A stretch of 64,000 bases of DNA, from positions 62,001 to 126,000 of the forward strand of contig NZ_JABFAU010000001.1 in NCBI RefSeq assembly GCF_017168335.1. Reading direction: 5' to 3'. Position numbers and translations under genes: made by a program. Source of the stretch: Rhodococcus sp. KRD162. Lineage in GTDB: Bacteria; Actinomycetota; Actinomycetes; Mycobacteriales; Mycobacteriaceae. Positions 1,192 to 9,643 of the stretch are shown in pieces (position 1 is the stretch's first letter; each line of letters starts with the position of its first letter). The notes below the pieces were generated by a model. That model was not told the origin of the DNA and did no database searches. It saw only the letters and a program-made list of their open reading frames with translations.

Positions 1192-1408
1192 TACGGGTGG
1201 GTGGGGAGCGGCGCAGGCACCGCTGGTCGATGACTGCATTGCAGGGTTTCTCGACGTCATCGCGCTCAACCGTGTCAACGAGAACCTTGCCCGCGCGGCG
1301 ACTGTGCTCGCGTACTGCGATGTGCTCGAGATGCGCCTCGAGGCGGCCGAAGCCGCCGGCGGCGATCCGGGCGAGACCGTCCGCGGTGCCCTGTGCGATC
1401 TGGCGTGA
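1184..1408 (+). CDS. DUF222/HNH protein, N-terminal fragment
   Basis: Seventy-four residues (MFDTGGWGAAQAPLVDDC onward) that look like the beginning of a DUF222-type (13E12 repeat family) HNH endonuclease: a helical segment rich in Ala, Glu and Arg with the pattern LARAATVLAYCDVLEMRLEAAEAA. The frame ends at TGA 1406-1408, and the rest of the DUF222 domain continues in the next frame from a GTG that overlaps this stop (GTGA). Either the gene has suffered a one-base frameshift or the two halves are made separately by translational coupling. The start is placed at ATG 1184 because the family starts here and the SOS-like box overlaps it. Confidence 0.65.
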   Translation: MFDTGGWGAAQAPLVDDCIAGFLDVIALNRVNENLARAATVLAYCDVLEMRLEAAEAAGGDPGETVRGALCDLA

Positions 1409-3219
1409 CGATGACCAAAACGCGTCACGATGCGTCCGTGGTGCACGATGTCGCGGAGCGTCTGCATCGAATGCCGTTGACTGCCTTGCGTTTCGTGACC
1501 GGCAGCTTCGACTGGTCGACGGTGGTCACCATCACCTCGGTCTTGCATCGTGCCAGTGACGAGACGATCGCGAACCTCGAATTCGAGGTGTGTGCATCGG
1601 GTGGTCGAATGCGTCCGCAGGCGCTGCGCAATCGGATCTGGCGGCTGTGGACGAAGGCCGATCCGATCGGTGCCGCAGCGGCCCATGAGACCGCGAAGTC
1701 CGAGGAGCTCGGAGTGAGAGTCGACCGCACCGGTCCGGGCGGGATTGCGTCGCTCATCGCGAAGATCACCGATCTCGAAGCTGCGGAAGCCGACGCACTC
1801 ATCGTCGAGATCGTCGGGACGGTCTGCACGGGCGACCCACGGTCGACGGGTGCGTTGCGGGCCGCGGGTCTGATGGCGTTACTGCACGGCGAGCATTCGC
1901 TGGCGTGTCAGTGCGATCGCGGCGACGACTGCCCGGTGGCGGGCGCTGTCGACGATATTCCTCCTCGGTGCGGGCATCTCCTCCAGATCGTGGTGGCGGT
2001 GGAGACGCTACTGGGACTGTCCTCGGAGCCCGCGACCCTTGCCGACGGGACGCCCATCGACCCCGAAGTGGCGCGCATCGTCGCCACTGACGCGAAGTGG
2101 CAGGCGCTGCTGACCGAGCTGGTCGAGATGGTCAAGCCCGAACGAAAAGACACGGGCGACGACGGATTTGGCAATGGTGGCCCAGACGACGGTGGTCCGG
2201 ACGGCGACGGTGGTCCAGACGGCGGTGGTCCAGACGGCGGTGGTCCGGATTGTGGTGGTCCAGACGACGTCGGCGGTCCTCGTCACGGCGGCACCACGGG
2301 CAACCCGGACAGCCCAGCCCCGGCGCGCCCCGGAGGTCCTTCCTTCTCCGACGTCGACCATGCCGGCTCACTCGGCGGCGAAGGGTCGAGTGTGCAGTCG
2401 AATTCGTTCGGATCGTTCTCTGCGGCGGTGCCGTCGGTGTTGCGTCGGGTGGTCGGCATGGGTCGGGTGCGAGGTCCCGCCCAGCTTCCGTCCGTGCGTC
2501 TTGTGGGTGCCCACTGTCTCCCACCTGCGGTCCCGCTACCGGGGGAGGAGTCTGTCCGCGATGGGCTCGTCGCACGGTGGCTTGCATGGATCGCCGAACG
2601 GCCCGAGCGTGCTCGCGGTATCTTTCCCGACGGTCACGGCGGTGAGTTCGCTCCGTCGAAGTCGGCGATCACGTATCGGCCCGGTGCCCGCGTCGCCGCG
2701 TTCGTTCGTGCTGCGTATCGCACGTGTACGTTCCCCAACTGCGACGTGCCGGCGGCCCGGTGTCAGATCGATCATCTGGTTCCCTTCGATCACGACGATC
2801 CGGGGCGCGGCGGCTGGACGATCGTGACCAATCTTCAGCCGGTGTGCGTGTTCCATCATCAGGCCAAGACCTCGGGGGCGTGGTCGGCGGTGATGCTCGC
2901 CGACGGCGCGATTCTGTGGTCGAACTCCCTCGGTCTGCGCACAGTCACGTTGCCGGAGTTGTCCATCGCGGCTCCCCGCCTATCGCGCCGACGGCGAAAG
3001 GCCTCGTCCAGGCCGGGAGCGAGGCCGGTCGAACCCACCCGCTGGGAGCTCGACTACAGCGGGTGTATACCTCCGACGCTCGACGACTGTCGCTCTGCAG
3101 CAACAGATATCGATCGAAGAAGGTTGGCGGAGAGACGGCGTGCCTACCTCGAACACTGTCGCGTCGTCCACGCGCGCGTTCGATACGACCGCACCCGATA
3201 CGACCCTCCGCCGTTCTGA
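1405..3219 (+). CDS. DUF222 domain HNH endonuclease (main part)
   Basis: About 604 residues. The first 240 are DUF222 (for example LPLTALRFVTGSFDWSTVV-like text and a Cys-rich CQCDRGDDCPVAG). A Gly/Pro/Asp repeat linker follows (bases 2161-2280), then a variable segment, and a C-terminal HNH nuclease at bases 2721-2880 with CTFPNCDVPAARC, the catalytic QIDHLVPFD, NLQPVCVFHH and a trailing Lys. Zinc-binding Cys pairs and the DH of HNH are present, so the nuclease module looks intact. Family members are multicopy in mycolata and some are SOS-induced; their biological role is not settled. Start: GTG 1405 overlapping the upstream stop, or ATG 1411. Together with the upstream frame this is one split gene. 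Confidence 0.8.
   Translation: MTMTKTRHDASVVHDVAERLHRMPLTALRFVTGSFDWSTVVTITSVLHRASDETIANLEFEVCASGGRMRPQALRNRIWRLWTKADPIGAAAAHETAKSEELGVRVDRTGPGGIASLIAKITDLEAAEADALIVEIVGTVCTGDPRSTGALRAAGLMALLHGEHSLACQCDRGDDCPVAGAVDDIPPRCGHLLQIVVAVETLLGLSSEPATLADGTPIDPEVARIVATDAKWQALLTELVEMVKPERKDTGDDGFGNGGPDDGGPDGDGGPDGGGPDGGGPDCGGPDDVGGPRHGGTTGNPDSPAPARPGGPSFSDVDHAGSLGGEGSSVQSNSFGSFSAAVPSVLRRVVGMGRVRGPAQLPSVRLVGAHCLPPAVPLPGEESVRDGLVARWLAWIAERPERARGIFPDGHGGEFAPSKSAITYRPGARVAAFVRAAYRTCTFPNCDVPAARCQIDHLVPFDHDDPGRGGWTIVTNLQPVCVFHHQAKTSGAWSAVMLADGAILWSNSLGLRTVTLPELSIAAPRLSRRRRKASSRPGARPVEPTRWELDYSGCIPPTLDDCRSAATDIDRRRLAERRRAYLEHCRVVHARVRYDRTRYDPPPF
2161..2280 (+). repeat. In-frame GGPD low-complexity repeat
   Basis: Imperfect 12-15 bp units (ggtggtccagacggc and variants) encode alternating GGPDD, GGPDG and DGGPDGG stretches. 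They form a flexible acidic linker between the DUF222 domain and the HNH part. Such arrays vary in length by slippage. Confidence 0.8.
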
Positions 3220-3261: not shown

Positions 3262-3278
3262 CTTGAACGCCGTTCAAG
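3262..3278. promoter_or_regulatory. BioQ-like operator upstream of bioY
   Basis: The perfect inverted repeat CTTGAAC-GCC-GTTCAAG lies 43 bp before the bioY start. Its core TGAAC-N3-GTTCA resembles the 13-bp operator (TGAAC-N3-GTTAC) recalled for the TetR-type biotin repressor BioQ of Corynebacterium. The downstream gene is a biotin transporter, so biotin-responsive repression is the natural reading. The regulator itself is not in this window. Confidence 0.7.
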
Positions 3279-3321: not shown

Positions 3322-3924
3322 GTGTCCGATGTCGACAGCAATACTCGCCCGCCGAGCCGTAAGGTCAGCCGAATGAACGTCTCTGCCCGCGACATGGCAC
3401 AGATCGCAGTGTTCGCGGCGCTCATCGCCGCCCTCGGTCTGCCGGGATCGATCACGGTCGGATTCTCGGGCGTCCCCATCACCCTCCAGACCCTCGGCAT
3501 CATCCTGTGCGGCGCGATCCTCGGTGCCCGTAAAGGCACGGCCGCGGTCCTGGTGTTCCTCGCGCTGACCATGATCGGCCTGCCCCTGCTGGCAGGCGGA
3601 CGTACCGGGTTGTCGGCGATGGCCGGGCCCACCGTCGGCTACCTGATCGGCTGGATTCCTGCCGCATTCCTGATCGGCCTACTCACCGCACGCATCCTGC
3701 CCAAGTACTCGATTCCGCTCGGTCTGCTGATCAACGCGGTCGGCGGCATCCTCGTCATCTACGTGTTCGGCATCATCGGACTGTTCCTACGCACCGATGT
3801 CGGGTTCTGGGCCGCCATCACCTCCAACGGCCCGTTCCTGCCCGGTGACGTTGCCAAAGTCGTCGTCGCCACCGTCGTGGCCAAGAGCGTGCATCGTGCG
3901 TACCCCGGTCTGATCACGAAGTGA
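3322..3924 (+). CDS. bioY: BioY, substrate-binding membrane component of biotin ECF transporter
   Basis: A 200-residue integral membrane protein that captures biotin for import. It shows the BioY signature SGVPITLQTLGIILCGAILG around residues 50-68, the ARKG motif that follows it, and about six hydrophobic helices (ALTMIGLPLLAGG, GPTVGYLIGWI, LLINAVGGILVIYVFG). A soluble stretch of about 20 residues precedes the first helix. GTG 3322 is supported by AGGAG at 3311-3315. Its stop overlaps the GTG of the following ligase gene, and the transporter partners BioM and BioN lie 2.3 kb further on in the same operon, so uptake and the interposed enzymes should be made together. Confidence 0.95.
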   Translation: MSDVDSNTRPPSRKVSRMNVSARDMAQIAVFAALIAALGLPGSITVGFSGVPITLQTLGIILCGAILGARKGTAAVLVFLALTMIGLPLLAGGRTGLSAMAGPTVGYLIGWIPAAFLIGLLTARILPKYSIPLGLLINAVGGILVIYVFGIIGLFLRTDVGFWAAITSNGPFLPGDVAKVVVATVVAKSVHRAYPGLITK

Positions 3925-5057
3925 CCGTCGAGCTGGGAGGGAGAGGGAGTGACACCGCCATCGTCTGGGCGGGTCGCACCCTCACCTACGCCGAACTCGA
4001 CGCAGCCGTCGAGCAGTGGCCTCACCTCCCGGTGCACGGCGCTCGATCCCACAGCGTTCGATCCCACGACGCATCAGCGCTCGATCTGCCCGATGTGTTG
4101 ATCTGCGTTTTCGCAGCAGCGCGGCAGGGGAGCGCGGTGCGAGTCGAGGACCCGGCCACCCGTCCCGAACGCCCTGCGCACCCCGATCCTGACGCGTTCC
4201 TGCTGGTGGCGACCTCCGGTTCCACCGGCCGCCCGAAACCGCTCGCTCGCACGGCCGAGTCGTGGGCCGACAGTTTCCCCGAGTTCACCGACATCACCGG
4301 GATCCGCCCCACCGACACCGTGTTGATCACCGGGCCGCTGCACGCCACGATGCATCTGTTCGCCGCGGTGCACGCACTGTGGCTGGGGGCCTGCGTCACC
4401 GATGACCCGGCCGAGGCCACCGCAGTGCACGCTGTGCCTGCAGTGCTCCGCGAGGTGGTCGGCCGAATGCCGCGCGCTCGGCTCGCGGTGTCGGCAGGAG
4501 CCGGCCTCGGCTCAGCTGCGGAGCAGGCGATCTCGACACGCGGAATCCGACTCGTCGAGTACTACGGCTCGGCAGAACTGTCGTTGGTGGCCACGCGCGT
4601 GGTGGGCGAACATTCTGCGCTGCGTCTGCTTCGGGAGGTCGAAGCACGCACCGAGGACGGCTACCTGTTCGTTCGATCGCCGTACGCCGCGCTCGATGCG
4701 CGCGGCTGGTTCGGCGTCGGTGATCTGGCCGAACTGAACGGCACCGAACTCCTCGTCCACGGACGCGGGGATGCAGCGATCAACGTGGGCGGAACCACCG
4801 TGATCGCCGAGGACGTGGAGAACATCTTGACCGCGCTCGACGGTGTCCGGGCTGCGGCCGCGATCGGTACACCACATGCGGTACTCGGCGAAACGGTCTG
4901 CGCTGTGATCGAACTCGACGGAACCCGCGAGCTCGACCTCGTTCGCGCCGAGGCTCGCGCAGTCATGGCCAAGGAAGCGTTGCCGCGACGGTGGACGGTG
5001 GTGCAGCAGTTGCCCCGCACCGCGAGCGGCAAGATCGCACGAGGGGCCCTGCAGTGA
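3921..5057 (+). CDS. Short AMP-dependent acid-CoA ligase-like enzyme in biotin operon
   Basis: A 378-residue adenylate-forming enzyme (ANL superfamily) with the full core set: P-loop VATSGSTGRPKPL near residue 96, YYGSAE (A5) near 217, GDLAEL (A7), RGDAAINVGG (A8) and C-terminal PRTASGKIAR carrying the adenylation Lys. Compared with usual acyl-CoA synthetases (500 residues or more) the N-terminal subdomain is very short, like small MenE-type ligases. The carboxylic acid substrate is unknown; position between bioY and bioMN suggests biotin, a biotin vitamer or a pimelate-like acid. Start GTG 3921 overlaps the bioY stop and its own stop overlaps the thiolase start, so translation is coupled on both sides. 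Confidence 0.8.
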   Translation: MTVELGGRGSDTAIVWAGRTLTYAELDAAVEQWPHLPVHGARSHSVRSHDASALDLPDVLICVFAAARQGSAVRVEDPATRPERPAHPDPDAFLLVATSGSTGRPKPLARTAESWADSFPEFTDITGIRPTDTVLITGPLHATMHLFAAVHALWLGACVTDDPAEATAVHAVPAVLREVVGRMPRARLAVSAGAGLGSAAEQAISTRGIRLVEYYGSAELSLVATRVVGEHSALRLLREVEARTEDGYLFVRSPYAALDARGWFGVGDLAELNGTELLVHGRGDAAINVGGTTVIAEDVENILTALDGVRAAAAIGTPHAVLGETVCAVIELDGTRELDLVRAEARAVMAKEALPRRWTVVQQLPRTASGKIARGALQ

Positions 5058-6172
5058 CTGTGCCGGTCATCGTTGCGGCGAAACGCACGGCAATCGGCAT
5101 CGCCGGGCATGGCTTCGCCGAGGTCACTGCCCCGAACCTCGCCGGACCGGTGTTGAAAGCGGTTGCAGAACAAGTAAGTTCGATCGACAGCCCGATCGAC
5201 GACGTGATCCTCGGCAACTGCCTCGGTCCCGGCGGCGACCTCGCGCGGGTCTCGTCGCTGCTCGCGGGTCTCGGAGTCGGCGTTCCCGGAGTCACCGTCG
5301 ATCGGCAGTGCGGATCGGGGCTCGACGCCGTCGTGCAGGCCGCGTCGCGTATCCGCGCCGGCGACGAGACGCTGATTCTGGCCGGCGGCGTCGAATCGGC
5401 AAGCACCAGCCCGTGGCGATTCTGGCCACCGGTGGACGGCGCAGACCCGGTCCGCTACACGCGAGCGCCGTTCGCTCCACACGGCTTCGAAGACCCGGAC
5501 ATGGGTGTGGCCGCGGACGACCTCGCGCGAATCCGCGGTATCGGGCGCGAACGCCAAGATGCCTACGCGGCGCGGTCGTTCGCGCGCGCGGCGGCCTGCG
5601 ACTTCTCGGCCGAGATCGTCACGGTGAACGATGTCGCACGCGATGAGCGCATCCGCCCCAACATGACCGTCCAGCGGCTCGGCAGGCTCCGCCCCACGTT
5701 CACCCCCGACGGCACGGTGACGGCGGGTAACTCGTGCGGAATATCGGATGGCGCAGCGGTTCTGGCCCTCACCACGGCCGAGCGGGCAGCTGGGATGTCT
5801 GCGTTGCGTGTTCTCGGCAGTGCGGTCGCAGGGTCCGATCCGGCTCTTCCCGGCCTCGGCCCGGTACCGGCGATCGAGAAGCTGCTCGCCCGGACCGGGG
5901 TGCGTCCCGCAGACATCGACACGATAGAGATCACCGAGGCATTCGCATCGGTGGTACTCGCGGTCTCGGACGAGTTGGGTCTCGACGAAGAGCGGATCTG
6001 CCCGGAGGGTGGAGCCATCGCGATGGGTCATCCGTGGGGTGCATCGGGTGCGATTCTGCTGGTGCGGTTGGCGTCACGAATGCTGCAATCGAACGGTCCG
6101 GCACTGGGATTGGCAGCCTGCGCCATCGGCGGCGGGCAAGGTATAGCGATGTTGGTGGAGCGAGTGGCATGA
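5054..6172 (+). CDS. Thiolase-family enzyme in biotin operon
   Basis: A 372-residue thiolase (acetyl-CoA acyltransferase family), which cleaves or forms beta-ketoacyl-CoA. Active-site elements: nucleophile Cys86 in VDRQCGSGLDAV, a TEAFAS block (Asn of the usual NEAFA replaced by Thr), GGAIAMGHPWGASGA with the catalytic His, and the second Cys in CAIGGGQGIAML. The protein is slightly short for the family (about 390). GTG 5054 overlaps the stop of the upstream ligase; an upstream open stretch to 4991 lies inside the ligase gene and is not used. A ligase plus thiolase would allow chain shortening or condensation of an acid brought in by, or related to, the biotin transporter. This last point is inference. 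Confidence 0.85.
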   Translation: MTVPVIVAAKRTAIGIAGHGFAEVTAPNLAGPVLKAVAEQVSSIDSPIDDVILGNCLGPGGDLARVSSLLAGLGVGVPGVTVDRQCGSGLDAVVQAASRIRAGDETLILAGGVESASTSPWRFWPPVDGADPVRYTRAPFAPHGFEDPDMGVAADDLARIRGIGRERQDAYAARSFARAAACDFSAEIVTVNDVARDERIRPNMTVQRLGRLRPTFTPDGTVTAGNSCGISDGAAVLALTTAERAAGMSALRVLGSAVAGSDPALPGLGPVPAIEKLLARTGVRPADIDTIEITEAFASVVLAVSDELGLDEERICPEGGAIAMGHPWGASGAILLVRLASRMLQSNGPALGLAACAIGGGQGIAMLVERVA

Positions 6173-6182
6173 GCAGGATTCG

Positions 6183-6863
6183 ATGAGCACGGTCAGGTTC
6201 GAGAACATTTCCCACTCGTTCGGAGAGCGGCAGGTTCTGCGCGGCATCGATCTCGCATTCGACGAGCGCCGCATCGGCATCATCGGATCGAACGGGTCCG
6301 GCAAGTCCACCCTCGCGCGAATGATCAACGGGCTGATCAAGCCCGATACCGGCCGTGTCACCGTCGACGGCGTCGATGCAGCCAAGAAGGGGGCGCAGGT
6401 CCGCAAGAAGGTCGGGTTCGTGTTCACGGACCCCGATTCGCAAATCGTGATGCCCACTGTCTCCGAGGATCTCGCGTTCTCGCTCCGCAGGTCCGGTTTG
6501 AGCAAGGCCGAGGTGGCCGAGCGGGTGGAGGAGATTCTCGTCCGCTTCCGTCTCGATCAGCACCGCGACCACCCGGCGCACCTGCTCTCGGGTGGACAGA
6601 AGCAGCTGTTGGCGATCGGTGCCGTGCTCATCAGGCGGCCGGAGGTGGTCGTGGCCGACGAGCCGACCACGCTGCTGGATCTGCGCAACGGACGCGTCGT
6701 CGCGCAGGCGTTGGATTCGATGGACCAGCAAGTCATCGTCGTGACCCACCAACTGGCATTACTGGACAGTTTCGAGCGAGTCATCGTCATCGACGACGGC
6801 CGGGTCGCCTTCGACGGTGCCCCGGACGCTGCAGTCCCGGCGTATCGGGAGTCGATCGGATGA
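6183..6863 (+). CDS. bioM: BioM, ATPase of biotin ECF transporter
   Basis: A 226-residue ABC ATPase of the EcfA/CbiO type that powers biotin uptake. Walker A is GSNGSGKST at residues 35-43, the Q-loop region is FVFTDPDSQI (the DPDxQ form is typical of ECF ATPases), the signature is LLSGGQKQ, Walker B is VVVADEPTT, and the switch His lies in VVTHQ. Only one ATPase gene is present, so a homodimer is expected as in BioMNY systems. It begins 10 bp after the thiolase stop and its stop overlaps the ATG of bioN (ATGA). Confidence 0.93.
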   Translation: MSTVRFENISHSFGERQVLRGIDLAFDERRIGIIGSNGSGKSTLARMINGLIKPDTGRVTVDGVDAAKKGAQVRKKVGFVFTDPDSQIVMPTVSEDLAFSLRRSGLSKAEVAERVEEILVRFRLDQHRDHPAHLLSGGQKQLLAIGAVLIRRPEVVVADEPTTLLDLRNGRVVAQALDSMDQQVIVVTHQLALLDSFERVIVIDDGRVAFDGAPDAAVPAYRESIG

Positions 6864-7507
6864 TCGGTCTCTACCGTCCTGGCACCTCGTTGCTGCACCG
6901 GATGAGTCCGGGGTCGAAGCTGCTGGCGTTGATCCTCGCGATTCTGGCGACGGTGATCTTTGCCCGCACACCGCTCGAGGTGGGTATGGTGGCCGTTCTC
7001 GTCGCCGCTCTGTTCGCGGTAGCCCGAATCCCGGTGAAAGTCGCACTGGCACAGCTGCGTCCGGTGTTGTGGATGCTGTTGATCATCGGCGTGTTCCAGG
7101 TCCTGTTCACCACCTGGCAACGCGCTCTCGTGGTGTGCGGGGTGCTGGTGATCTCCGTGGCCCTGGCGGCCCTGGTCACGTTGACCACCCGAGTGACCGA
7201 CATGCTCGACACCGTCACCCGATCGCTCGGTCCGGTCCGACGCTTCGGCGTCGACCCCGATCGCATCGGTCTGCTTCTCGCCCTGGCCATCCGCTGCATC
7301 CCGCTGCTCGCGTCCATCGTGCAGGAGGTATCGCAGGCCCGCAAAGCACGCGGACTGCAGTGGTCGATGACGGCCCTGGCCACTCCGGTCCTGGTGCGCG
7401 CGCTGCGCACCGCCGATGCAATGGGTGATGCCCTCGTGGCCCGCGGTGTGGACGACGACGGTGTGGACAACGACGGTGTAGACGACAACGGTGCCGAACG
7501 TGAGTGA
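6860..7507 (+). CDS. bioN: BioN, coupling membrane protein (EcfT) of biotin transporter
   Basis: A 215-residue membrane protein with four to five hydrophobic segments and the two EcfT coupling motifs that touch the ATPase: ARKARGL near residue 157 and DALVARGVD near residue 193 (Ala-Arg-Gly in each). It starts with the family-typical YRPGTSLLHRMSPGSKLLAL. The last 18 residues are an odd acidic repeat, DDDGVDNDGVDDNG, made by a tandem DNA repeat at 7453-7493 and probably not functional. ATG 6860 overlaps the bioM stop. The following ligase gene begins inside its 3' end. Confidence 0.92.
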   Translation: MIGLYRPGTSLLHRMSPGSKLLALILAILATVIFARTPLEVGMVAVLVAALFAVARIPVKVALAQLRPVLWMLLIIGVFQVLFTTWQRALVVCGVLVISVALAALVTLTTRVTDMLDTVTRSLGPVRRFGVDPDRIGLLLALAIRCIPLLASIVQEVSQARKARGLQWSMTALATPVLVRALRTADAMGDALVARGVDDDGVDNDGVDDNGAERE

Positions 7508-8948
7508 GTTGCTCACTGCCCGCGTGGCACGTCATGCCGGGAGTCACAATGCTGCGCTTGTCGACGCGACGGGCGAGATCACCTACCGCCGATTCTGGGA
7601 TCGAGTCGAGCGCACAGCTGGTGCCCTGGTGGGGATGCGGCGCATCGCAGTGTTGCCGACGTCCGATATCGGGTCGCTGGTCGTCGTGCTGGCGGCGATG
7701 CATGCAGGCGTGAGTGTCGTTCTGTTGCATCGGCATCTCGTGCCCAGCGAATTCGCCGAGGCGATGACGGTGTGCGAGCCGTCGCTGATCGCAGCGCACC
7801 CGCGCTCGCATGCACGGCTGCGCACCTGGGGCGCGCAGAACGTTCGGGCTCCGGCCGATCTCGCTACCGGTATTTCCGGCACCGTCGGTGGTCCTTCGCC
7901 GAGTTCGGAGCTTCTGGTGGGCATCACATCCGGAACCACCGGGCCACCCAAGTTGTTCGTGCGCAATCATGCGTCGTGGGCGGCGACGCTCGATCGCTCC
8001 GATGCCCTGTTCGATCTCGGTCCAGGCGATCGGGTGTCCGCACCCGGCACACTCGATCACACGCACTTCCTCTACGGCGCTGTGCATGGACTCACTCGTG
8101 GTGCGACGGTAGACCTGCGGGAGCCGGCAGCGGCTCTCGCCGACGCTGCGAGCCATCTGTATTCGGTACCCACCATTGCCTGGAACATCGCTCGTTCGGG
8201 ACGGCGATCGGCGAGTGTCCGTGAGGTGCTCTCGTCTGCGGCGCGGTGGGCGGAGTCGGGTCGAGAGGCACTGGCGACGGCCCTACCGAACGCAACAATG
8301 ACGCACTTCTACGGCGCATCGGAGTTGAGTTTCGTCTCGTACGACCGTCGAACTGCCGTCGGCGCGGAGGTGGAAGGCGCGTTGTTCGACGGCGTCGAGG
8401 TCGAGAGCAGGGACGAGCTGCTCTACGTCCGCAGTGACATGCTGTTCGACGGCTATCTGGGTCGTTCGGGGCAGCAGGAGTCGGTGGCCGGAGGACCGGA
8501 CGACGACGGGTGGATGACGGTCGGCGATCGTGGCAGTGTCGAACAGGGGCGACTGATCCTGCACGGCCGTGGCAGCGAGACGATCGTCCGGGCCGGGCTC
8601 AACGTCGAGTTGGTGCCGATCGAAGCGGCGCTGCTCGCAATTCCCGGTGTGCTCGAGGCCGGGGTGGTCGGGCTGCCCCACGACCGAGCCGGTGAGGAGC
8701 CTGCGGCCGGAGTTGTTGTTGCGCAGACCGATCCGATATCGGTGGCGCAGATTCGCCGCCACCTACGCACCGTGCTACCGGGGCCGAGCATGCCGGTGGT
8801 GATCGCCGCCGTGGATTCCCTGCCCCGAACACCACGCGGCAAGCTAGACCGTCACGCCTTGGGCGCAACCTTGGCCACGGTGCGGACCGTCGGCTCTCCC
8901 GATGCTCCTGTGACGACGAACCAGACGGTCAACGCGCCGCCGTCGTAG
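7491..8948 (+). CDS. AMP-dependent acid-CoA ligase-like enzyme, end of biotin operon
   Basis: A 485-residue ANL-superfamily enzyme. Motifs: YRRFWDRVERTAGALVG (N-terminal A1 area), P-loop VGITSGTTGPPKLFV near residue 143, HFYGASELSFV (A5), VGDRGSVEQGRLILHGRG (A7/A8) and PRTPRGKLDR (A10 Lys). It is not closely similar to the short ligase at the head of the operon, so the two probably do not duplicate each other. The start is GTG 7491 or GTG 7500; both overlap bioN, so expression is coupled to the transporter. Substrate unknown. The last 97 bp overlap the 3' end of the thioesterase gene on the opposite strand. Confidence 0.82.
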   Translation: MPNVSELLTARVARHAGSHNAALVDATGEITYRRFWDRVERTAGALVGMRRIAVLPTSDIGSLVVVLAAMHAGVSVVLLHRHLVPSEFAEAMTVCEPSLIAAHPRSHARLRTWGAQNVRAPADLATGISGTVGGPSPSSELLVGITSGTTGPPKLFVRNHASWAATLDRSDALFDLGPGDRVSAPGTLDHTHFLYGAVHGLTRGATVDLREPAAALADAASHLYSVPTIAWNIARSGRRSASVREVLSSAARWAESGREALATALPNATMTHFYGASELSFVSYDRRTAVGAEVEGALFDGVEVESRDELLYVRSDMLFDGYLGRSGQQESVAGGPDDDGWMTVGDRGSVEQGRLILHGRGSETIVRAGLNVELVPIEAALLAIPGVLEAGVVGLPHDRAGEEPAAGVVVAQTDPISVAQIRRHLRTVLPGPSMPVVIAAVDSLPRTPRGKLDRHALGATLATVRTVGSPDAPVTTNQTVNAPPS

Positions 8949-9643
8949 CGGTGGCGCAGGGAGACACGTTCGTGGCCGAGCACCGGGGTCAGATATTCGA
9001 TGACGGCGCGGTGCGGCGCGGCGGCCAGCTCCGGCAAGTCCACCAGCAGCTCCTCGATCGCATGCCAGTAGGCAGCATTGTTGAGGTGGTTGAACGGATC
9101 GATATCGGTTGCGCGCAAAGGAAAGTGGAGATCGGTGGGCGACTCGGTCGGCACCGGCTCGGTCAGCCATGCCTTCCATCGCAGCCGGTGCTGGTCGGTG
9201 GTTCGGGCCAGCATTTCCAGTGCCCCGTCGCTGATGCGCGTCGGCATCCCCGTGTCCTTGCTGATGTTGATCCAGAAGCCCTCGGTCTCGATGCGTCCGC
9301 CCTTCGGCGTCGTCAGCGCCACTCGCATGTTCGACCATCGCGTCGACATCGACGAGCACCACCGGCGCAGGTGCACACGATCCGGGAAGTGGATGGGTTC
9401 GATGACGTCGATGACGGTGCGCCGGACGATCCACATCGGGTCGGTCTTGCCGAGGGGAGTGGCGTCGAGGTTGTCGGTGCCGACGTCCTGTAGATAGCGG
9501 GCCACGCCGTCGAATCGGAGCCGATTGTTCGGATCGATGTCGCCCGTACGCACCGGCCAGCTGGTCTCGAAGCCCTCACCCGGCGGTGGCTCGGGAGCGA
9601 GTTCGTCGTCGAAGCCACCCGGTTCCACACGCGCATTGGTCAC
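8852..9643 (-). CDS. Acyl-ACP thioesterase family protein
   Basis: A 263-residue double hot-dog protein of the acyl-ACP thioesterase family (PF01643, FatA/FatB-like). The first hot-dog holds the catalytic-type RTGDIDPNNRLRFDGVARYLQDVGTDNL-like region (residues 31-58), and the second repeats the pattern as RATDIDPFNHLNNAAYWHAIEELL with an Asp, Asn and His set. Such enzymes release fatty acids from acyl carrier protein or CoA. It is convergent with the biotin operon and overlaps its last gene by 97 bp. Whether it acts with that operon is open; free acids it made could be substrates for the ligases. Confidence 0.82.
   Translation of the reverse strand: MTNARVEPGGFDDELAPEPPPGEGFETSWPVRTGDIDPNNRLRFDGVARYLQDVGTDNLDATPLGKTDPMWIVRRTVIDVIEPIHFPDRVHLRRWCSSMSTRWSNMRVALTTPKGGRIETEGFWINISKDTGMPTRISDGALEMLARTTDQHRLRWKAWLTEPVPTESPTDLHFPLRATDIDPFNHLNNAAYWHAIEELLVDLPELAAAPHRAVIEYLTPVLGHERVSLRHRYDGGALTVWFVVTGASGEPTVRTVAKVAPKA

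What the first reader, a model, noticed from the sequence alone, without database searches (positions are those of the whole stretch)
3322..8948. Biotin ECF transporter operon with two acid ligases and a thiolase built in
Seen: bioY, a short ANL ligase, a thiolase, bioM, bioN and a second ANL ligase follow one another on one strand. Five of the genes overlap a neighbour at GTGA/ATGA or a few codons, and the only gap is 10 bp before bioM. Known: BioMNY alone suffices for uptake, and neither ligases nor a thiolase are part of standard biotin systems. Inference: the enzymes act on what the transporter brings in or on a biotin precursor. Options are CoA activation and beta-oxidation-type shortening or repair of biotin side-chain vitamers, or supply of a pimeloyl-type thioester for ring assembly. 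This is the best candidate for an undescribed system in the window.
Basis: partly seen in the sequence, partly recalled or inferred. Interest (0 to 1): 0.87.

Follow-up and report, generated by a model that had tools for sequence, protein, structure and literature searches.

The report
Biotin importer with possible side-chain repair
A bacterial biotin-import operon carries acid-activating enzymes and a thiolase-like enzyme that has lost one of its two catalytic cysteines; the same genes sit beside the biotin importer in three bacterial phyla and may rebuild damaged biotin, a role nobody has tested here.

Summary
Confirmed: bioY, a short ANL ligase, a thiolase-like gene, bioM, bioN and a second ANL ligase lie head to tail at 3322-8948, behind an exact BioQ operator (3264-3276). 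The kind is not undescribed: bioY-ligase-thiolase is the biotin/BirA-regulated yhfUTS operon of B. subtilis, whose function I found in none of the papers searched.

New here: (1) in 168 actinomycete genomes, 24 carry this thiolase type and all 24 within 2 kb of bioY; the trio also occurs in Bacillales (20 of 20 loci opened) and alphaproteobacteria. (2) 64 of 64 members keep Cys89 and His348, none has the second catalytic Cys378; 12 of 12 ordinary thiolases do. (3) Ketoreductase, MaoC dehydratase, enoyl-reductase-like and thioesterase genes adjoin the trio in part of the Bacillales and rhizobial loci, not in the Actinobacteria examined.

18 of the 24 genomes lack bioB, so precursor supply is not the general role. 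Best explanation: under biotin limitation, CoA activation and two-carbon re-extension of imported shortened biotin (bisnorbiotin). Substrate, direction and each catalytic step are inferred.

The parts
3264..3276 (.). BioQ-type operator TGAACGCCGTTCA, 46 bp before the bioY start codon
   Evidence: Exact match to TGAAC-N3-GTTCA (consensus from passages of PMC3398298); 6 sites in the 5.9 Mb genome, 0 for the reversed control
3322..3924 (+). bioY, biotin-specific S component of an ECF importer
   Evidence: PF02632 1.2e-37; matches solved BioY 4dve at 2.8e-24
3921..5057 (+). ligase 1, short (378 aa) ANL acyl-CoA ligase in the position shared with other Actinobacteria
   Evidence: PF00501, PF13193; best profile PRK07638, below cut-off; A3, A5 and A10 motifs present
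5054..6172 (+). thiolase-fold enzyme of the YhfS clade, Cys89 and His348 kept, Cys378 and Asn316 lost
   Evidence: PF00108, PF02803; residues; model pLDDT 95 and thiolase fold
6183..6863 (+). bioM, ECF ATPase
   Evidence: PF00005; best NCBIfam hit TIGR04520, below cut-off
6860..7507 (+). bioN, ECF T component
   Evidence: PF02361 3.7e-15
7491..8948 (+). ligase 2, full-length (485 aa) ANL acyl-CoA ligase, seen next to bioN only in the window and two relatives (L093, L097)
   Evidence: PF00501, PF13193; own clade with support 1.0; distribution

Best explanation
A BioQ-controlled biotin uptake operon of the YhfUTS kind. Shown by sequence: a BioYMN importer, CoA ligases with intact motifs, and a thiolase-fold enzyme with Cys89 and His348 but no Cys378, behind an exact BioQ operator. 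Inferred: when biotin is scarce the importer brings in biotin and shortened biotin vitamers, above all bisnorbiotin (biotin less two side-chain carbons). A ligase makes the CoA thioester and the thiolase-like enzyme adds two carbons, probably as a ketoacyl-synthase-like condensing enzyme. A ketoreductase, dehydratase, enoyl reductase and thioesterase, encoded beside the trio in some Bacillales or rhizobia and presumably elsewhere in this genome, would complete the cycle to biotin. In the window ligase 1 is the trimmed copy in the shared position and ligase 2 a full-length extra one that may do most of the activation.
For: Exclusive linkage to bioY in 24 of 24 actinomycete carriers, 20 of 20 opened Bacillales loci and 6 of 10 alphaproteobacterial loci. 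Exact BioQ box here and in L093 and L097; published BirA control of the B. subtilis and S. aureus homologues. Carriers without bioB: 18 of 24 actinomycetes, 4 of 6 rhizobia, 5 of 30 Bacillales, so the substrate should already hold the ring. Cys378 absent in 64 of 64 against present in 12 of 12 paralogues, which speaks against thiolysis. Neighbours that fit chain extension: MaoC dehydratase gene(s) in 7 of 20 and FabG-like SDR in 5 of 20 Bacillales loci; thioesterase plus MDR reductase-like protein in 9 of 10 alphaproteobacterial loci. Bisnorbiotin is 13-23% of urinary biotin-related excretion (passage of PMC9106636), so such vitamers exist to be salvaged.
Against: No assay, phenotype or bound ligand. 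Loss of Cys378 also impairs the ordinary Claisen step of thiolases, so condensation needs an unproven mechanism; in all 24 actinobacterial members (window included) Asn316 is lost too. No extension-type neighbour adjoins the operon in 23 actinomycete loci, and no single locus holds the whole set. 25 of 30 Bacillales carriers have bioB, where a precursor role is still possible. Three of 10 alphaproteobacterial loci (L117, L121, L302) have the enzyme pair without bioMNY beside it. A BioQ box is exact in only 2 of 23 other enzyme-bearing actinomycete loci. Whether BioY carries bisnorbiotin is unknown.
Confidence: 0.38

Rival explanations
1. Biotin-sparing lipid module. When biotin, and so acetyl-CoA carboxylase, is limiting, the ligase activates exogenous or recycled fatty acids and the thiolase-like enzyme feeds them into fatty acid synthesis as primers, sparing malonyl-CoA.
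For: The best profiles are general acyl-CoA ligase and acyltransferase models; SDR and MaoC neighbours also fit fatty acid elongation; it works without bioB and explains control by biotin.
Against: Does not explain why all 24 actinomycete copies adjoin bioY itself and why none lies with fatty acid genes instead.
Confidence: 0.2
2. Acyl transfer without condensation. With Cys89 and His348 only, the thiolase-like enzyme passes an activated biotin-type acyl group to another acceptor or releases it, for retention or processing of imported biotin.
For: Cys378 lost in 64 of 64, Asn316 lost in 24 of 24 actinobacterial members; no elongation neighbours in 23 actinomycete loci.
Against: Asn316 is kept in 40 of 64, all Bacillales and alphaproteobacteria; the neighbours there form an extension set.
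Confidence: 0.17
3. Supply of a pimeloyl-type thioester for de novo biotin synthesis, for example by extending an activated C5 diacid.
For: 25 of 30 Bacillales carriers have bioB; the window genome has bioB and a bioF-like gene, both with BioQ boxes.
Against: 18 of 24 actinomycete and 4 of 6 rhizobial carriers lack bioB. Genes for other pimelate routes (bioC, bioW, bioI, bioZ) were not searched.
Confidence: 0.12
4. Beta-oxidation-type shortening of biotin or longer side-chain vitamers by a true thiolase.
For: Annotated as ligase plus thiolase; MaoC and SDR enzymes can also run in that direction.
Against: Cys378 missing in 64 of 64; breaking down biotin when it is scarce makes no sense; no acyl-CoA dehydrogenase among the annotated neighbours of L117, L118, L119 and L121 (other loci not checked for it).
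Confidence: 0.06

Closest known systems
B. subtilis yhfUTS and S. aureus yhfS-yhfT, BirA/biotin-regulated
   Same: BioY-like gene, YhfT-type ligase, YhfS-type thiolase in that order in B. subtilis; best profiles PRK07638 and PRK06690; one clade with the Bacillales members, support 1.0
   Different: Here bioM and bioN are interleaved, a second ligase is added, control is by a BioQ-type box, and scores are below the curated cut-offs
BioYMN/BioMNY ECF biotin importer (C. glutamicum bioYMN)
   Same: bioY, bioM, bioN on one strand and a TGAAC-N3-GTTCA box upstream
   Different: Three enzyme genes within and after the importer genes; C. glutamicum has bioYMN alone as its operon (passages of PMC3398298)
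Thiolases (acetyl-CoA acetyltransferases)
   Same: Fold (TM 0.92-0.94 in the ten best PDB matches), Cys89 and His348
   Different: Second catalytic cysteine absent in all 64 members examined
S. meliloti pSymB and Azospirillum bioMNY-ligase-thiolase clusters
   Same: Same ligase and thiolase families directly after bioY
   Different: Order bioM-bioN-bioY-ligase-thiolase; S. meliloti adds thioesterase and MDR genes

Membership tests
ECF biotin importer BioYMN | S component BioY, ATPase BioM and T component BioN encoded together | tested here: met
   Pfam PF02632, PF00005, PF02361 on consecutive genes
ECF biotin importer BioYMN | Transports biotin | not testable with these tools
   Needs uptake assay; homology only
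YhfUTS-type biotin operon | bioY followed by YhfT-type ligase and YhfS-type thiolase on one strand | tested here: met
   Order; thiolase in one clade with Bacillales members, support 1.0
YhfUTS-type biotin operon | Scores above the curated PRK07638 and PRK06690 cut-offs | tested here: not met
   120.6 and 201.4 against 518 bits; 324.7 against 498 bits
YhfUTS-type biotin operon | Under a biotin regulator | tested here: met
   Exact BioQ box at 3264-3276, rare in the genome; binding itself not tested
Thiolase (enzyme) | Thiolase fold with nucleophilic Cys89 and His348 | tested here: met
Thiolase (enzyme) | Second catalytic cysteine, Cys378 | tested here: not met
   Ala in the window; 0 of 64 family members, 12 of 12 paralogues
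ANL acyl-CoA ligase | Core motifs A3, A5 and the A10 lysine | tested here: met
   Both window ligases; A10 lysine in 49 of 50 aligned ligases, A5 glutamate in 50 of 50
Pimeloyl supply for biotin synthesis | Carriers have biotin synthase bioB and so can use a pimeloyl thioester | tested here: inconclusive
   bioB in 6 of 24 actinomycete, 2 of 6 rhizobial and 25 of 30 Bacillales carriers: not met as a general rule, met in Bacillales and in the window genome

The most novel reading that the evidence does not exclude
A biotin side-chain repair pathway spread over three phyla: cells import bisnorbiotin with BioY, activate it, and rebuild the valerate side chain with a thiolase converted into a ketoacyl-synthase-like condensing enzyme, giving biotin without any ring-assembly gene. 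Many 'biotin auxotrophs' could then live on degraded biotin.
Probability: 0.32. Interest if true: 0.88.

Novelty: new variant of a known kind. Interest (0 to 1): 0.62.

Why it matters
The passages I read on yhfS and yhfT call them putative fatty-acid ligase and acetyltransferase and give no role. The missing catalytic cysteine, the extension-type neighbours and the presence in genomes without bioB turn that into a direct question: does this set make biotin from bisnorbiotin? If yes, some bacteria scored as biotin auxotrophs can recycle spent biotin, and the 'acetyl-CoA acetyltransferase' label on this clade is wrong.

Tried and rejected
Riboswitch: no Rfam match at gathering threshold in the window. 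Pimeloyl supply as the general role: set aside on missing bioB. bioF as a second marker was uninformative: 110 of 168 genomes match at 1e-70 but none passes the cut-off; I suspect (recall) that the related Kbl enzyme is hit. Thiolytic shortening: disfavoured by Cys378 loss. The neighbouring Cys in the window's AACAIGGG is not a general substitute, since many members lack it. Cys228 is frequent in the family (58 of 64) but Ser in 6 and present in 3 of 12 paralogues, so it is no clean replacement. Window thioesterase 8852-9643 as part of the unit: no hit above 60 bits in L093 or L097. BirA-like palindromes upstream of bioY in 20 Bacillales loci: fewer mismatches than the shuffle mean in 20 of 20 but below the best of 20 shuffles in only 11 of 20, so supportive at most. 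BioQ boxes: 95 of 99 bioY loci could be scored; exact in 2 of 23 with the enzymes (L093, L097; the window makes 3 of 24) and 17 of 72 without, so BioQ control holds for the window's relatives, not for all carriers. BioR boxes in alphaproteobacteria: not tested. Excess of bioB-less genomes among carriers: Fisher p 0.026, not corrected for kinship. The ligase 1 model is poor (pLDDT 77.4, pTM 0.61), so its matches say only ANL-like. The BirA-box scan stopped at 120 loci; none holds a homologous thiolase (80 loci, the other 40), and one (L127) has a ligase hit far from the box. A weak ligase hit near a bioY in L032, without a thiolase, was not counted. From the ligase count two distant ligases (in L276 and L278) were dropped. 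Papers: ten searches showed no function for YhfS/YhfT and no bacterial bisnorbiotin salvage; they cover open-licence PMC papers only. I saw passages of PMC6391492, PMC7235819, PMC11089781, PMC4016012, PMC3398298, PMC4595758, PMC9106636 and PMC7337054, and listings with abstract starts of the rest. Names such as Cys89/Asn316/His348/Cys378 follow the Zoogloea numbering, recalled and in part; motif names A3-A10 are recalled.
Full report
WHAT IS THERE. Six genes run head to tail on the + strand: bioY 3322-3924, ligase 1 3921-5057, thiolase-like 5054-6172, bioM 6183-6863, bioN 6860-7507, ligase 2 7491-8948 (sequence). Pfam shows BioY, two-domain ANL ligases, both thiolase domains, an ABC ATPase and a CbiQ-type T component; BioY matches the solved BioY 4dve. 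Three junctions overlap by 4 bp, one by up to 17 bp, one has a 10-bp gap. Upstream, at 3264-3276, lies an exact copy of the published BioQ operator TGAAC-N3-GTTCA (consensus from passages of PMC3398298). The 5.9 Mb genome has six such sites and none of the reversed control pattern. One is here; one lies at the start of a bioF-like gene (L017); two lie between bioB and a divergent TetR-family gene that I take for bioQ (L018). Of the other two, one is inside a helicase gene (L016) and one inside a possible 89-codon frame, 136 bp before an amidase frame (L015). So four of six sites sit at biotin genes.

WHAT KIND IT IS. The best NCBIfam profile of both ligases is PRK07638; the best equivalog-type profile of the thiolase is PRK06690. 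All score below the curated cut-offs, so these are divergent members. At E up to 1e-95 the PRK06690 model rings in one of 14 control genomes, B. subtilis, and there over the cut-off; that this is YhfS is inference. B. subtilis yhfUTS (BioY-like protein, ligase, thiolase) is bound by BirA and regulated by biotin (passages of PMC4016012), and S. aureus yhfS-yhfT likewise (passages of PMC6391492 and PMC7235819).

LINKAGE TO THE IMPORTER. Of 168 Actinomycetes genomes drawn evenly from the class, 107 have BioY over the cut-off. I opened 98 bioY loci besides the window's own, leaving out seven genomes of one genus, one short hit (G093) and the second BioY of G077. In 22 of the 98 the thiolase follows bioY, with a ligase between them in 21 (L097 has none). 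Ten of the 22 continue with bioM and bioN as in the window; eleven continue straight with bioN and show no bioM hit anywhere in the stretch; in one the contig ends. Searching the same 168 genomes with the window's thiolase at E up to 1e-75 gives 24 genomes, one hit each, and in 24 of 24 the hit is on the same contig as a BioY hit, 57 to 1822 bp away. Only the best 11 first-look candidates per genome were scored, so this speaks for close homologues. Ligase 2 was seen only in the window and two relatives, L093 and L097. In the ligase tree ligase 1 groups with other positional ligases and ligase 2 forms its own clade (1.0); how the two groups join is weakly supported (0.35).

THE TRIO IN OTHER PHYLA. 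In 150 Bacillales genomes 14 have the thiolase over the cut-off; the 30 best loci, 16 of them below it, all have a ligase directly upstream. I opened 20 of the 30 more widely: 20 of 20 are bioY-ligase-thiolase on one strand. In alphaproteobacteria S. meliloti pSymB and an Azospirillum plasmid carry bioM-bioN-bioY-ligase-thiolase; R. phaseoli and R. etli plasmids carry ligase-thiolase without bioMNY beside them. Six of 101 Rhizobiaceae genomes match at 1e-95; four of these loci include bioM and bioY, one does not, and one contig begins inside the ligase.

NOT AN ORDINARY THIOLASE. I aligned 64 members (24 actinobacterial with the window, 10 alphaproteobacterial, 30 Bacillales) with 12 other thiolases: eight from the window's genus and four from Bacillota. 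Cys89 and His348 are present in 64 of 64. The second catalytic cysteine, Cys378, is present in 0 of 64 (Gly 40, Ala 22, Ser 2) and in 12 of 12 others; the 64 form one split, support 1.0. The actinomycete members were picked by place beside bioY, the Bacillales and Rhizobiaceae ones by profile score, none by these residues. Asn316 is kept in 40 and is Val in 18 and Thr in 6, the 24 being the actinobacterial ones. PMC4595758 treats both cysteines as catalytic (passages). The fold is intact: mean pLDDT 95, ten best PDB matches thiolases with TM 0.92-0.94. The ligases look active: A10 lysine in 49 of 50, A5 glutamate in 50 of 50.

NEIGHBOURS POINT TO ELONGATION. In 10 of 20 opened Bacillales loci the following same-strand genes include MaoC-type dehydratase gene(s) (7 of 20) or a FabG-like SDR (5 of 20); L290 and L292 have both. 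Nine of 10 alphaproteobacterial loci have a hot-dog thioesterase and an MDR protein with PIG3 and acrylyl-CoA reductase profile matches below cut-off; L304 also has an SDR. Two of these nine supplied the queries, and several are close relatives. Together these are the parts of one two-carbon extension: activation, condensation, keto reduction, dehydration, enoyl reduction, release. No single locus holds all of them, and in 23 actinomycete loci none adjoins the operon, a real weakness for the window.

INDEPENDENCE OF RING ASSEMBLY. bioB over its cut-off is found in 80 of 168 actinomycete genomes but in 6 of the 24 carriers (Fisher p 0.026, not corrected for kinship), in 2 of 6 rhizobial carriers, and in 25 of 30 Bacillales carriers. 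Feeding ring assembly is thus not a role all carriers can share. The window genome itself has bioB and a bioF-like gene; bioC, bioW, bioI and bioZ were not searched.

MOST LIKELY MECHANISM. Enzymes derepressed when biotin is scarce, tied to the biotin importer, and kept by cells that cannot build the ring most simply act on acids that already hold the ring. The best candidate is bisnorbiotin, two carbons shorter, 13-23% of biotin-related excretion in human urine (passage of PMC9106636). Activation, two-carbon extension, reduction and release would return biotin. Shown: gene content, linkage, operator match, active-site residues, distribution. Inferred: substrate, direction, extender unit and every catalytic step. 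Rivals: a biotin-sparing fatty-acid module, a pure acyl-transfer role, pimeloyl supply in bioB-bearing carriers, and true thiolytic shortening.

NOVELTY. The operon kind is known and biotin-regulated. The interleaving with bioMN and a second ligase, the clade-wide loss of Cys378, the extension-type neighbours and the spread into bioB-less genomes I did not see in ten searches of the open-licence library; papers outside it were not searched.

Noticed in passing
window 8852-9643 (-): Acyl-ACP thioesterase-type gene (PF01643, PF20791) converges on the operon and overlaps the end of ligase 2 by 97 bp; no hit above 60 bits in L093 or L097.
   Followed up: partly
window 1393-3219 (+): 608-aa DUF222 protein with a repetitive Gly/Asp-rich middle just upstream of the operon.
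   Followed up: no
L018 5971-6677: bioB and a divergent TetR-family gene (probable bioQ) share an intergenic stretch with two BioQ boxes 16 bp apart.
   Followed up: partly
L015 4567-6119: A BioQ-type palindrome lies 136 bp before an amidase frame (PF01425) but also inside a possible 89-codon frame; a biotin-regulated amidase is not excluded.
   Followed up: partly
L054, L064, L079, L095, L098, L100, L101, L102, L103, L105, L110: Eleven actinomycete loci, all of one family (f18), have bioY-ligase-thiolase-bioN with no bioM hit in the stretch fetched, so the importer there may use an ATPase encoded elsewhere.
   Followed up: partly
L097 (G102, same genus as the window): Operon bioY-thiolase-bioM-bioN-ligase 2 without ligase 1, in a genome without bioB; suggests ligase 2 can serve alone.
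   Followed up: partly
L117, L121, L302 (Rhizobium-type): Thioesterase-ligase-thiolase run with a divergent MDR gene and no bioMNY beside it.
   Followed up: partly
L306 6215-7660 (+): A 481-aa open frame with a C-terminal 4HBT match lies across the place of the MDR hit; gene limits there not resolved.
   Followed up: no
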